From: Serinus canaria
Taxonomy: Eukaryota > Chordata > Aves > Passeriformes > Fringillidae
Direction of reading: 5' to 3'
NCBI RefSeq assembly: GCF_022539315.1
Contig: NC_066313.1
Span: 22,481,059-22,545,058 of the forward strand
Length of the DNA stretch: 64,000 nucleotides
The notes under the pieces are model-generated. The model was not told the DNA's origin, did not search any database, and was given only the letters and a program-made list of their open reading frames with translations. Positions 33,800 to 52,345 of this stretch are shown one piece after another; within the stretch, counting starts at the first letter, position 1, and every line of letters starts with the position of its first letter. A program made the translations under genes and the position numbers.

Positions 33800-33836
33800 T
33801 CTGCAGTTCCCAACCCGTAGTGTTGGGAACTGCAGA
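33800..33836. repeat. Perfect inverted repeat, 15-bp stem
   Basis: Arms at 33800-33814 and 33822-33836 (TCTGCAGTTCCCAAC and its exact complement) are separated by a 7-nt loop, CCGTAGT. Unlike the surrounding sequence the palindrome is unblemished. It could be a small hairpin or a palindromic end of an unrecognised element. Confidence 0.8.
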
Positions 33837-36729: not shown

Positions 36730-36781
36730 ATTTTGCCGGCAATAAATATTTCCCGGGTCCCCCTGGGGTCGCCCCCGTCGA

Positions 36782-36796
36782 GGGGCCGAAGGCCCC
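36782..36796 (+). repeat. GAA-loop GC hairpin, copy 1
   Basis: GGGGCC and GGCCCC pair perfectly over 6 bp around a GAA loop. The same hairpin is at 37766-37780 in the second copy. Confidence 0.8.
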
Positions 36797-36825
36797 GAAG
36801 AAAGTTATTCTGTCGGACTTTTTGT

Positions 36826-36845
36826 AATAAAGCTACGGTTTTATT
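36826..36845. terminator. Facing poly(A) signals of the circular element
   Basis: AATAAA at 36826-36831 (plus) is followed at once by TTTATT at 36840-36845, which is AATAAA on the minus strand. Convergent signals of this kind end two transcripts that leave the origin region in opposite directions, as in circoviruses. The pair is repeated at 37810-37829. Confidence 0.5.
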
Positions 36846-36882
36846 TTTTCGCTCGGTTCAGAGTTTTGCGTGGGTTCCAATG

Positions 36883-37022
36883 TCTCGCGAGAACTGTGTG
36901 CCGTGTGGGTGCCGTGTGGGTGCCGTGTGTGTGCCGGTGCGCGTGTGTGTGAGTCCGGCTGGGTGAGTGCAGCTGTCTCAGTGGCTGACGTCATCGTGGG
37001 TGGTGCTCGTGGGTCAACCAAT
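36883..37022. promoter_or_regulatory. Promoter-like motif cluster left of the origin
   Basis: The cluster holds TCTCGCGAGA (36883-36892, a vertebrate bidirectional core-promoter palindrome), a consensus CRE, TGACGTCA (36986-36993), and CCAAT (37018-37022). All recur 984 bp later. The motifs are vertebrate host factor sites, as expected of a replicon transcribed in animal cells. No TATA box was found. Activity is inferred. Confidence 0.5.
36898..36941 (+). repeat. 11-bp tandem repeat, four units
   Basis: Units of GTGCCGTGTGG follow one another at 36898, 36909 and 36920, with a degenerate fourth at 36931. The array recurs at 37882-37925. It could bind a host or viral factor; it is not placed like the origin iterons. 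Confidence 0.75.
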
Positions 37023-37084
37023 GACGGTGCGTGCGTGAAGCTGGTCGTCGCGCCCACTGTGTCTGCACGGCACTGATAAGGCCG

Positions 37085-37127
37085 TGGCTCCAAGTTGCCG
37101 TATAGTATTACCGGCAACTTGGAGCCA
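37085..37127 (+). other. Rolling-circle origin stem-loop, copy 1
   Basis: A perfect 16-bp inverted repeat (37085-37100 with 37112-37127) encloses an 11-nt loop that contains TAGTATTAC at 37103-37111. A wobble and two more pairs could lengthen the stem. TAGTATTAC in a hairpin loop is the conserved origin of circoviruses and several other CRESS-DNA families. Their Rep protein nicks between the seventh and eighth bases. The stem is longer than the roughly 10-12 bp usual in circoviruses. Confidence 0.9.
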
Positions 37128-37135
37128 TGGAGCCA
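37121..37135 (+). promoter_or_regulatory. Iteron-like GGAGCCA direct repeat beside origin
   Basis: GGAGCCA occurs at 37121-37127 (the outer part of the right stem arm) and again at 37129-37135, one base apart. In circoviruses, short tandem repeats just 3' of the stem-loop bind Rep. The layout here is the same. The pair is repeated at 38105-38119. Confidence 0.65.
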
Positions 37136-37143
37136 CCACCGAC

Positions 37144-37188
37144 TGCGCATGTGCAAAGGGGCGGAGCCTCAAAGTCTGCGCATGCGCA
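37144..37188. promoter_or_regulatory. NRF1 sites and GC box right of the origin
   Basis: An NRF1-like TGCGCATGTGCA (37144-37155), a GC box GGGGCGG (37158-37164) and a perfect NRF1 palindrome TGCGCATGCGCA (37177-37188) lie within 45 nt of each other, starting 9 nt after the iteron-like repeats. This is where a plus-sense promoter of a circovirus-like circle would be expected. Only the first copy is present, because the insertion ends before this block in copy 2. Confidence 0.55.
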
Positions 37189-37238
37189 TTCGCACTGGTG
37201 CGTCACGGTGCCGATCCCGTCAGATGGGGGCGCTGTGC

Positions 37239-37589
37239 TCACTGAACTGTGACATGAGTGAGTGACATGGATCGGACACGCCACTGGGGGGTCCCCCATC
37301 TGCACTTGTCGGTGCACGTGAAAAAGAACCAGTGCGGGGGTCCCACCACGGCTGGTCGGTGTTGTGTGAGTGAGGGGCTGTGTGACGGGTACCCGCATAC
37401 GGTACCTGTGTAAGTGTGGTCCATGGGTGCTCTCAAGAAGATAATCAGCCTGAGAATACCCACTTTGATCTGTTGACCAATGTGGGAAAATGCAATGTAC
37501 CTGCGTTGATGAGACCGATTAATAGATGGGTGTTCTGGGCTGTAATGGTCTTCCTGAGTGCACCAGAGTGTGTGAAAACACTCGACCAA
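37239..37589 (-). CDS. Minus-strand open frame in circular element, up to 116 aa
   Basis: This is the longest frame in the 984-bp unit on either strand, with a non-ATG start. It is rich in His, Thr, Ser and Pro, has no arginine-rich N-terminus such as circovirus capsids have, and no recognised domain. A second minus-strand frame (36833-37156) runs through the origin stem-loop. Both are probably chance. Confidence 0.15.
   Translation of the reverse strand: MVECFHTLWCTQEDHYSPEHPSINRSHQRRYIAFSHIGQQIKVGILRLIIFLRAPMDHTYTGTVCGYPSHSPSLTQHRPAVVGPPHWFFFTCTDKCRWGTPQWRVRSMSLTHVTVQ
37267..37413 (+). CDS. Short ATG-started open frame in circular element, 48 aa
   Basis: This is the longest ATG-initiated plus-strand frame soon after the NRF1 and GC-box block, in the place where a circovirus rep gene would start. 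It begins MDRTRHWGV and ends at a TAA embedded in a GTAAGT splice-donor-like hexamer (37410-37415). It shows no Rep motif set that I would accept. It may be a real small protein, the first exon of a spliced message, a relic, or chance. Confidence 0.2.
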   Translation: MDRTRHWGVPHLHLSVHVKKNQCGGPTTAGRCCVSEGLCDGYPHTVPV

Positions 37590-37688
37590 CTACAAACACT
37601 CAGCCCCGAGGAAAAGAGCGTCTCGGAGGTGATTAATAAAGAATGCGCGCGAAGCGCGCGGCGAAGGCCGAAGGCCGAAGCCGCCTGA
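37416..37688 (+). CDS. Open frame in circular element, up to 90 aa, non-ATG start
   Basis: The frame is open from a GTG at 37416 to a TGA at 37686, with its first ATG at codon 32. It is the least repetitive frame in the unit. Its C-terminal end is basic (ARSARRRPK) because it enters the GC hairpin cluster. It contains an RWVF tetrapeptide, which by itself is too weak to claim kinship with Rep motif I. No known family was recognised. Confidence 0.2.
   Translation: MVHGCSQEDNQPENTHFDLLTNVGKCNVPALMRPINRWVFWAVMVFLSAPECVKTLDQLQTLSPEEKSVSEVINKECARSARRRPKAEAA
37635..37640 (+). terminator. Plus-strand poly(A) signal before the hairpin cluster
   Basis: An AATAAA within GATTAATAAAGAATG lies just before the GC hairpin cluster. 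It could end a plus-strand transcript that starts near the origin. It lies inside the 37416-37688 frame, which argues against that frame being a normal terminal coding sequence. Confidence 0.4.
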
Positions 37689-37780
37689 GACCGCGCGAAG
37701 CGCGGCCAGGCGCGAGCGGCAGCGAGCGGGCAGACCCCGGGTCCCCCCGGGGTCGCCCCCGTCGAGGGGCCGAAGGCCCC
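37645..37780 (+). repeat. Cluster of GC hairpins, mostly with GAA loops
   Basis: Within 136 nt there are GCGCGC-GAA-GCGCGC (37645-37659), a GGCC-GAA-GGCC series (37660-37682), CCGCGC-GAA-GCGCGG (37691-37705), an 8-bp palindrome around GTCCCC (37733-37754) and GGGGCC-GAA-GGCCCC (37766-37780). The 7-mer GCGAAGC, present in the first and third, is known to form an unusually stable single-stranded DNA mini-hairpin. The cluster lies opposite the origin on the circle and suggests selection for structure in single-stranded DNA or RNA. Confidence 0.8.
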
Positions 37781-38132
37781 GAAGAAAGTTATTCTGTCGG
37801 ACTTTTTGTAATAAAGCTACGGTTTTATTTTTTCGCTCGGTTCAGAGTTTTGCGTGGGTTCCAATGTCTCGCGAGAACTGTGTGCCGTGTGGGTGCCGTG
37901 TGGGTGCCGTGTGTGTGCCGGTGCGCGTGTGTGTGAGTCCGGCTGGGTGAGTGCAGCTGTCTCAGTGGCTGACGTCATCGTGGGTGGTGCTCGTGGGTCA
38001 ACCAATGACGGTGCGTGCGTGAAGCTGGTCGCCGCGCCCACTGTGTCTGCACGGCACTGATAAGGCCGTGGCTCCAAGTTGCCGTATAGTATTACCGGCA
38101 ACTTGGAGCCATGGAGCCACCACCGACTGCGC
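37736..38132 (+). repeat. Second, partial copy of the 984-bp unit
   Basis: This is a 397-bp direct repeat of 36752-37148 with two C/T differences, one of them at a CpG (copy 1 has T at 36764). It runs from the GC palindrome through the origin and stops 37 nt beyond the end of the nonanucleotide, where CR1 sequence resumes. Confidence 0.9.
38069..38111 (+). other. Rolling-circle origin stem-loop, copy 2
   Basis: This is an exact duplicate of the 37085-37127 stem-loop, 984 bp downstream, with TAGTATTAC at 38087-38095. Both arms and loop are intact in both copies, so neither has been degraded since insertion. Confidence 0.9.
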
Positions 38133-38455
38133 CTCTCTCAGCCTTCCCTTGTAGAAGAGATGCTCCACCCCTCTAATCACCTTGGTATCCCTTCTCTGGG
38201 CTAACTCCAACAGGTCCATGTCCTTTCTGTGTTGAGGACTCCAGAGTTGGATGCAGCACTCCTGGTGAGGGTCTCGCAGAGCAGAGCAGAGCAGAGCAGA
38301 GCAGAGCAGAGCAGAGCAGAGCAGAGCAGAGGGGCAGAATCCCCTCTCTTGCCCTGCTGGCCATGCTGCTTTGGGTGCAGCCCAATACAATTGGCTTTCT
38401 GGGCTACAAGAACACATTGCTGGATTGCATTGTCACTATTTCTGGATCCAGAGAT
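38133..38455 (-). mobile_element. CR1 LINE, continuation right of the insertion
   Basis: CR1 resumes at CTCTCAGCCTTCCCTTGTAG and continues through GAGATGCTCCACCCCTCTAA, CAACAGGTCCATGTCCTT, GTTGGATGCAGCACTCC and CTTGCCCTGCTGGCCATGCT. It continues the 36343-36729 piece without loss or duplication of more than a base or two, showing that the foreign DNA was inserted into an existing CR1 copy. Confidence 0.92.
38276..38330 (+). repeat. (GCAGA)11 microsatellite within CR1
   Basis: Eleven perfect GCAGA units sit at the point where CR1 normally has only a couple of GCAGA-like units before GGGGCAGAATCCCC. The array therefore arose by expansion of the CR1's own sequence. Confidence 0.93.
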
Positions 38456-51716: not shown

Positions 51717-52300
51717 CTGTTCAACAGGGCAGCTACACTGCTGTAGCATAGGGTCCCCAAAAGATCAAAACAGGCTTAGTGAGATGTGGATGGTGAGAGA
51801 AAAAGGAAAACAAGATGCAGTTTGAAAAAAAAAAAAAACAGACTGGAAAAAAGTACGGAAACATAATTTGAAACACAGACACTTAACTGTGGAGAGGGGA
51901 GAAGAAAGCCAGGAAACTGTGATAGCAAAATGGAGTTAAAGGTGATACAAGGCAGGAAACCAGACACAAGCTTCCAGAGAAATGAAACAGGCTTGAGCGA
52001 GACCAAATGTACCTAGGCCACAGTTCAGCAGAGCACACAAATTATTTGAAGGCACTTCCTTTGGTCGATGTACTTACTCACTTAAAGTAAATACTTCTGT
52101 GGTTCACTGATTGGCAACCTCATGCAGCAACATCTTACAAGAAATGTATTGAAAAGCAAGAGGTAGGAGCAAGCAGAAATGCGTTCGTGAGGTATCAGCA
52201 GCTGAGATGAAGAATTACCTGTCAAAACTTTTCCTGTAAACTCTTAAGAACTATTTGGTCTCAAAAAGGAAGGCGCAGTAAAAGGAAAGTGGTTGAAACT

Positions 52301-52345
52301 AGAAAGGAGTTCAGAAAGAAACCAGAAAGGAGTTCAGAAAGACTC
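52301..52345 (+). repeat. 23-bp tandem duplication
   Basis: AGAAAGGAGTTCAGAAAGA occurs at 52301 and again at 52324. The spacing of 23 bp is a simple two-copy tandem duplication. Confidence 0.9.

What the first reader, a model, noticed from the sequence alone, without database searches (positions are those of the whole stretch)
36730..38134. A small circular CRESS-DNA replicon integrated in a bird chromosome
A CpG-rich block unlike the rest of the window interrupts a CR1 copy and carries two intact circovirus-type rolling-circle origins spaced one unit (984 bp) apart. A unit of about 1 kb without a recognisable Rep or capsid gene does not fit any avian circovirus I know. It could be an animal satellite that borrows Rep from a helper, a defective subgenomic circle, or a new class of small circular element. 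Seen: the repeat structure, stem-loops and CR1 split. Known: TAGTATTAC hairpins mark CRESS-DNA origins. Inferred: a viral or satellite source.
Basis: partly seen in the sequence, partly recalled or inferred. Interest (0 to 1): 0.96.

Follow-up and report, generated by a model that had tools for sequence, protein, structure and literature searches.

The report
Gutted circovirus circle in bird chromosome
A chromosome of what is very likely a songbird carries a 1,405-base insert with two copies of a circovirus-type replication origin 984 bases apart and no recognisable viral gene; it is likely a recent germline capture of a stripped-down virus circle that would have needed a complete virus to copy it.

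Summary
A 1,405-bp CpG-rich block (36730-38134) splits a CR1-type repeat, with no target-site duplication and no host loss. It spans 1.4 periods of 984: two 397-bp arms, differing at 2 sites, each with a TAGTATTAC hairpin, around a 587-bp middle present once. The origin has the published layout of songbird and pigeon circoviruses: 19-nt arms, tandem TGGAGCCA repeats at the stem base, the repeat reversed in the other arm, and 20 of 23 bases of a pigeon circovirus primer. Three pieces covering 36735-37640 occur at this locus only in the 1.05-Gb genome. Open frames are no longer than chance; 29 of 37 scanned frames reach no Pfam cut-off. The arms have hardly diverged (about 1 My, roughly 0.1-6, on recalled rates), so in-genome decay cannot explain the missing genes. 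Best reading: a Rep-less, Cap-less subgenomic circle of a circovirus, amplified by a helper's Rep in trans and joined to the germline as a 1.4-mer by end-joining. The free circle, the helper and any present activity are inferred. A true satellite, or part of the deletion happening after insertion, is not excluded. No circovirus genome or raw reads could be compared, so the parent is unknown.

The parts
36730..38134 (.). whole insert, 1,405 bp, between host-repeat bases AATT and CTCTCAGCC; no target-site duplication, no loss
36730..36751 (.). 22-nt left junction filler, neither host repeat nor the matching part of the unit; weak resemblance to the reversed hairpin is not significant (40 of 500 shuffles as good)
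36752..37148 (+). repeat arm 1, 397 bp, with poly(A) signals on both strands, promoter-like motifs and origin 1
37736..38132 (+). repeat arm 2, 397 bp, 2 differences from arm 1
37082..37130 (+). origin hairpin 1: arms 37082-37100 and 37112-37130, TAGTATTAC at 37103-37111
38066..38114 (+). origin hairpin 2: arms 38066-38084 and 38096-38114, TAGTATTAC at 38087-38095
37120..37135 (+). tandem TGGAGCCA repeats (putative Rep-binding iterons), the first inside the right arm; reverse complement in left arm at 37085-37092; also in copy 2 at +984
37149..37735 (+). single-copy middle of the unit, 587 bp, no open frame beyond chance
37143..37188 (+). two CTGCGCATG-type sites and a GC box (promoter-like; factor names recalled)
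36826..36845 (.). back-to-back AATAAA signals (+ at 36826, - at 36845; second copy 37810/37829), like a bidirectional terminator
37386..37688 (+). 100-codon open frame; its tail reminded me of a Rep C-terminus, but no search supports that
38133..38134 (.). 2-nt right junction filler (CT)

Best explanation
The insert is likely a germline capture, about 1.4 units long, of a Rep-less and Cap-less subgenomic circle of an avian circovirus, which would have been copied by rolling circle with the Rep of a complete helper virus. Shown: two circovirus-type origins one period apart, a clean break in a host repeat copy, hardly diverged arms, no coding frame beyond chance. Inferred: a deletion during infection left the origin, flanking promoter-like sequence and the terminator-like region; Rep bound the TGGAGCCA repeats, nicked TAGTATT/AC and made head-to-tail multimers; one broken multimer was joined to a chromosome break by end-joining, leaving 22-nt and 2-nt fillers. 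Also inferred: the locus is transmitted silently today.
For: Origin of songbird/pigeon circovirus layout: 19-nt arms, iterons in and beside the stem; raven, starling and finch circoviruses have 19-, 17- and 15-nt stems with a repeat at the stem base and its reverse on the opposite arm (PMC7659335); 20 of 23 bases of a pigeon circovirus primer (PMC8995411); GGAGCC direct repeat in pigeon circovirus (PMC11020411). Head-to-tail period 984. No target-site duplication. One locus for three pieces. 2 differences in 397 bp and CpG o/e 0.985, so about 2.5 (upper bound 9) changes per unit since insertion, too few to erase a 300-codon gene. In two published avian genomes cap starts on the opposite strand at the edge of a 100- or 128-nt intergenic region around the nonanucleotide (PMC8950603); here no Cap-like frame lies there in either arm, so that loss preceded the duplication. 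The period is about half of published avian circovirus genomes of 1,935-2,045 nt; about half size is what lets geminivirus subgenomics be packaged (PMC3187698).
Against: No parent sequence found: viral contigs gave nothing related, though that collection seems to hold few animal CRESS viruses. The 37386-37688 frame has no match to Rep. Pfam Viral_Rep and Circo_capsid found nothing in the genome, but the same search rang in none of 14 controls, so this is not informative. The review that I rely on reports small rearrangements near the origin for circoviruses, less obvious than the large deletions of geminiviruses, parvoviruses and anelloviruses. Half-size packaging is argued from geminate particles; circovirus particles are not geminate (recall). 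The middle 587 bp exist once only, so for rep the pre-insertion loss rests on the age estimate alone.
Confidence: 0.6

Rival explanations
1. The insert derives from a true animal ssDNA satellite: an independently maintained circle of about 1 kb that shares only the origin with its helper circovirus, like the non-coding deltasatellites of begomoviruses (recall).
For: No recognisable virus gene; origin of known kind and the rest unmatched; promoter-like motifs and poly(A) signals on both strands.
Against: No relative found that would show independent maintenance; one locus only. The retained terminator-like and promoter-like regions fit a deletion derivative equally well. The collections searched hold few animal ssDNA viruses, so the lack of matches outside the origin says little.
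Confidence: 0.2
2. A longer-than-unit piece of a full-length or less deleted circovirus inserted, and the middle was later deleted in the bird genome, so that 984 is not a circle size.
For: Only the 397-bp arms are duplicated; the middle is present once.
Against: Both arms lack the start of Cap at the same place, so at least that loss came first; the insertion looks young, leaving little time for a further large deletion inside it.
Confidence: 0.13
3. Assembly chimera: a circovirus-like sequence from an infected bird or contaminant wrongly joined into the chromosome.
For: No raw reads could be examined; low divergence between arms.
Against: A single break in a host repeat copy with both halves in register and nothing lost; no N in the window; contig C1 is 114.8 Mb.
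Confidence: 0.05
4. Ordinary host repeat or DNA transposon.
For: The flanks are a host repeat.
Against: Three pieces match one locus (the one extra match, L009, is a GTG-rich simple repeat); no target-site duplication; the repeat finder shows no inverted repeat joining the two ends.
Confidence: 0.02

Closest known systems
Endogenous circoviral elements (CVe) of birds (PMC6372831, passages and section 3.6 read)
   Same: Circovirus-derived DNA in bird germlines; whole genomes in tandem are reported there for cyprinid fish
   Different: The bird CVe in its table are Rep or Rep-Cap derived; this one has no recognisable gene, has two intact origins and looks young
Rearranged or subgenomic porcine circovirus, e.g. 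circovirus-like P1, 648 nt (PMC5857601, passages read)
   Same: Sub-kilobase circle related to a circovirus
   Different: P1 keeps a capsid-gene-like frame and is a free agent of pigs; here a 984 period in a bird genome with no Cap-like frame
Geminivirus subgenomic DNAs and satellites (PMC3187698, section 5 and passages read)
   Same: Shortened circles near half genome size that keep the origin and can presumably be copied in trans; plants with subgenomic transgenes have been made
   Different: Plant viruses with geminate particles; no natural vertebrate counterpart seen in my searches (listed under Tried and rejected)
Songbird circovirus origins (raven, starling, finch; PMC7659335, passages read)
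   Same: Stem length, repeat at stem base with its reverse on the opposite arm
   Different: Those belong to complete genomes; their sequences were not compared here

Membership tests
[quoted passage not shown]
   compared with published descriptions
Circovirus (as a genome) | rep gene of about 300 codons downstream of the origin | tested here: not met
   longest frame 136 codons, not beyond chance; no Pfam match at cut-off
Circovirus (as a genome) | cap gene on the opposite strand | tested here: not met
   no Pfam match at cut-off in the minus-strand frames scanned
Circovirus (as a genome) | circle of about 1.7-2.1 kb | tested here: not met
   period 984; that it was a circle is inferred
Endogenous viral element | viral DNA joined to host DNA at a defined break | tested here: met
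   (assembly only; no reads)
Endogenous viral element | fixed or shared in a species or its sisters | not testable with these tools
   one genome held
Subgenomic / defective circovirus DNA | sequence shared with a parent virus outside the origin | tested here: inconclusive
   no circovirus genome available to compare; indirect searches empty
ssDNA satellite | no similarity to helper outside the origin, own lineage | not testable with these tools
   no helper or relatives held
DNA transposon or host repeat | target-site duplication and multiple copies | tested here: not met
   37641-37735 was not searched on its own

The most novel reading that the evidence does not exclude
A vertebrate has captured a defective-interfering circovirus DNA as a two-origin cassette: an infecting songbird circovirus could nick both origins with its own Rep, copy the 984-nt circle out of the chromosome and be out-competed by it, making the locus an inherited, virus-triggered decoy, the natural counterpart of plants engineered with geminivirus subgenomic DNA.
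Probability: 0.1. Interest if true: 0.93.

Novelty: new variant of a known kind. Interest (0 to 1): 0.66.

Why it matters
The endogenous circoviral elements listed for birds are Rep or Rep-Cap derived (PMC6372831), and a 2024 vertebrate-wide screen searched with viral proteins by tblastn (PMC11521997, passages). A gene-less, origin-bearing insert is invisible to such screens. A 2026 study searched avian genomes with a complete BFDV genome and found matches covering 3-47% of it in 16 taxa (PMC13268160, abstract and one section); whether any is origin-only I did not see. If confirmed, this locus implies that Rep-less trans-replicated circles arise in circovirus infections of birds and reach the germline, and that origin-based searches could uncover a hidden layer of ssDNA-virus fossils, including possible satellites of animal viruses. 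It also gives a natural case for asking whether endogenous defective viral DNA protects its host.

Tried and rejected
Rep remnant: I first read the tail of the 37386-37688 frame as the end of a circovirus Rep (a memory of motifs). Pfam, PDB, viral contigs (15 stretches matched a pattern, none a relative), a back-translated pattern, phage records and the large protein set (8 and 1 candidates, none scoring) gave nothing, so it is not used as evidence. The own-genome search with this frame did not complete.

Filler at the left junction as a reversed hairpin copy: 40 of 500 shuffles matched as well; rejected.

Patterns in viral contigs: one hit in a 536-kb contig and two in 14- and 21-kb contigs, taken as chance and not studied; the full hairpin gave none. 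A generic Rep-motif pattern found none, so this collection looks like a poor place for animal CRESS viruses and its silence means little. Distant DNA search of 37060-37640 in phage and plasmid records: none. Rfam over the window at gathering scores: none. tRNA: none.

CTTGGAGCCA in PCV3 papers: in the one paper checked it lies in a PCV3 ORF2 primer, not the origin; taken as chance. A bat circovirus-like stem-loop in PMC4331541 (passages) shares only GTATAGTATTACC; not used.

Draupnirviridae as source: the EVEs reported are Rep- and Cap-like, the krikovirus ones in snakes, lizards, turtles and insects (PMC10193959, abstract and section 7 read); nothing here ties to it.

Host identity: contigs C1 114.8 Mb and C2 72.1 Mb in a 1.05-Gb genome fit songbird chromosomes 1 and 1A by recall; not tested otherwise.

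Pfam scans covered 29 of the 37 frames; the other 8 are arm-2 counterparts or mostly host sequence. Four matches were below the curated cut-offs (GH-E 0.049, DUF997 0.17, DUF3824 0.031, DUF4719 0.27) and were set aside.

Novelty searches of the open library. No report of a gene-less endogenous circovirus-type replicon was seen in the listings, but searches returned nothing at all, most listed papers were not opened, and most subscription papers are not held.
Full report
WHAT IS THERE. The window lies at G000:C1:22481059-22545058 of a 1.05-Gb genome in 684 contigs. Between 36730 and 38134 a CpG-rich block interrupts an interspersed repeat. GC is 58.9% against 43.6%, and CpG o/e 0.985 against 0.108 in the rest of the window; the highest other 1.4-kb stretch reaches 0.296. 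A direct repeat with spacing 984 runs from 36752 to 37148 and from 37736 to 38132; 395 of 397 positions agree. Each arm holds a hairpin with 19-nt arms (95% complementary) and TAGTATTAC in an 11-nt loop. Hairpin 1 folds at -23 kcal/mol, with 0 of 200 shuffles as good. A scan for perfect stems of 12 or more with loops of 3-15 over the window found these two and one other place, 33800-33836.

BREAKPOINTS. I joined the host flanks and searched the genome. Of 41 matches, 38 run across the join, two are the flanks themselves and one is a 41-bp piece (40 of 2,181 candidates were scored). Of 18 copies aligned, 17 are three bases shorter than my join within about ten columns of the break, 12 of them exactly at the AATT/CTCTC position; one, L013, differs. 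The three bases are 36730 and 38133-38134, so the empty site reads AATT/CTCTCAGCC and the insert is 36730-38134. There is no target-site duplication and no lost host base. The left end carries 22 nt of unexplained filler and the right end CT. The right end lies 39 nt past the nick site, the left end about 350 nt before the first hairpin, so neither end is a Rep cut at the origin. Clean joins with fillers are what non-homologous end-joining gives (established knowledge), not what retrotransposition or a cut-and-paste transposon gives.

COPY NUMBER. Three pieces (37060-37250, 37240-37640, 36735-37060) match this locus; 37641-37735 was not searched alone. The minus-strand rows are the hairpins against themselves; one further match on C2 (83%) is a GTG-rich simple repeat (sequence). 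The tool warns that counts are lower bounds.

WHOSE ORIGIN. Next to the nonanucleotide, TGGAGCCA occurs twice in tandem (37120, 37128), the first inside the right arm and with its reverse complement in the left arm (37085-37092, read). In print, raven, starling and finch circoviruses have stems of 19, 17 and 15 nt with a repeat at the stem base and its reverse on the opposite arm (PMC7659335, passages; [quoted passage not shown] Pigeon circovirus has TAGTATTAC, an inverted repeat around GGAGCCAC and a direct repeat GGAGCC (PMC11020411, passages). A pigeon circovirus primer (PMC8995411, passages) agrees with the insert at 20 of 23 positions, in register with the end of the nonanucleotide. The window's only matches of 15 or more of 23 are these two places and, at 17, the opposite arms of the same hairpins. 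So the origin is of the pigeon/songbird circovirus kind. Contig sizes of 114.8 and 72.1 Mb suggest a songbird host; that link is recall.

WHAT IS MISSING. The longest stop-to-stop frame in 36752-38132 is 136 codons and the longest from ATG 105; 274 and 225 of 300 dinucleotide shuffles have frames at least as long. Of 37 frames of 30 codons or more, 29 were scanned against Pfam; three of these gave four matches, all below the curated cut-offs and none viral by name. The 100-codon frame 37386-37688 has no homologue in any answered search. Neither gene is recognisable here.

WHY THE LOSS CAME FIRST. The arms differ at 2 of 397 sites. With 1.5-3.3e-9 changes per site per year (recalled range) this is 0.8-1.7 My, 95% limits 0.09-6.1 My over these rates, and 2.5 (upper bound 9) changes per unit. 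Unconverted CpG supports youth. Gene conversion between arms, or an unmethylated state, could make it look younger than it is. A few changes cannot erase two genes, and the stretch 5' of the hairpin, where cap should begin, has no Cap-like frame in either arm, so the donor already lacked it. For rep the argument rests on age alone, since that side is present once.

MECHANISM. Shown: origins, tandem period, insertion. Inferred: a deletion during circovirus infection left a circle of 984 nt, about half of 1,935-2,045 nt. Rep of the full virus recognised the retained repeats and copied it in multimers. One linear multimer was captured at a break in the germline. [quoted passage not shown] The same section says that rearrangements in circoviruses are small and less obvious, which counts against my reading. 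A porcine circovirus Rep can act in trans on another ssDNA virus (PMC10844557, abstract), and a 648-nt circovirus-like agent is known from pigs (PMC5857601, passages). Some metagenomic cruciviral circles without a clear rep but with an origin may be subgenomic or parts of multipartite genomes (PMC7468197, passage). Of ten promoter- and signal-type patterns tried, five (two NRF1-type patterns, TCTCGCGAGA, TGACGTCA, GGGGCGG) occur in the window only inside the insert, which its CpG richness alone would favour. AATAAA lies on both strands at 36826/36845 and 37810/37829, but it occurs 72 times in the window. Factor names and use are recall and inference.

AGAINST. No parent or helper sequence was found, and the collections within reach seem to hold few animal CRESS viruses (one search found no generic Rep motif). 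Pfam Rep and capsid searches of the genome were empty but rang in no control either. No reads, no related bird genomes. A satellite and a partial later deletion remain open.

VERDICT. Present in the assembly, at one locus for all pieces searched, probably young, and unlike the listed endogenous circoviral elements of birds in having origins but no recognisable genes. New variant of a known kind.

Noticed in passing
38276-38331: perfect GCAGA pentamer repeat (11.2 copies) in the host flank right after the insert
   Followed up: no
33800-33836: the only other long perfect stem found in the window (15 bp, loop 7), outside the insert
   Followed up: no
36898-36936 and 37882-37920: GTGCCGTGTGG repeats, 3.5 copies in each arm; a similar GTG-rich array on contig C2 (L009) gave the only cross-match elsewhere in the genome
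   Followed up: partly
C31 of G000 (loci L012, L018, L019, L024, L025, L027): matches to this host repeat cluster on contig C31 (6 of the 18 fetched copies from elsewhere); perhaps a repeat-rich sex chromosome
   Followed up: no
52295-52342: short 23-bp tandem repeat, 2.1 copies
   Followed up: no
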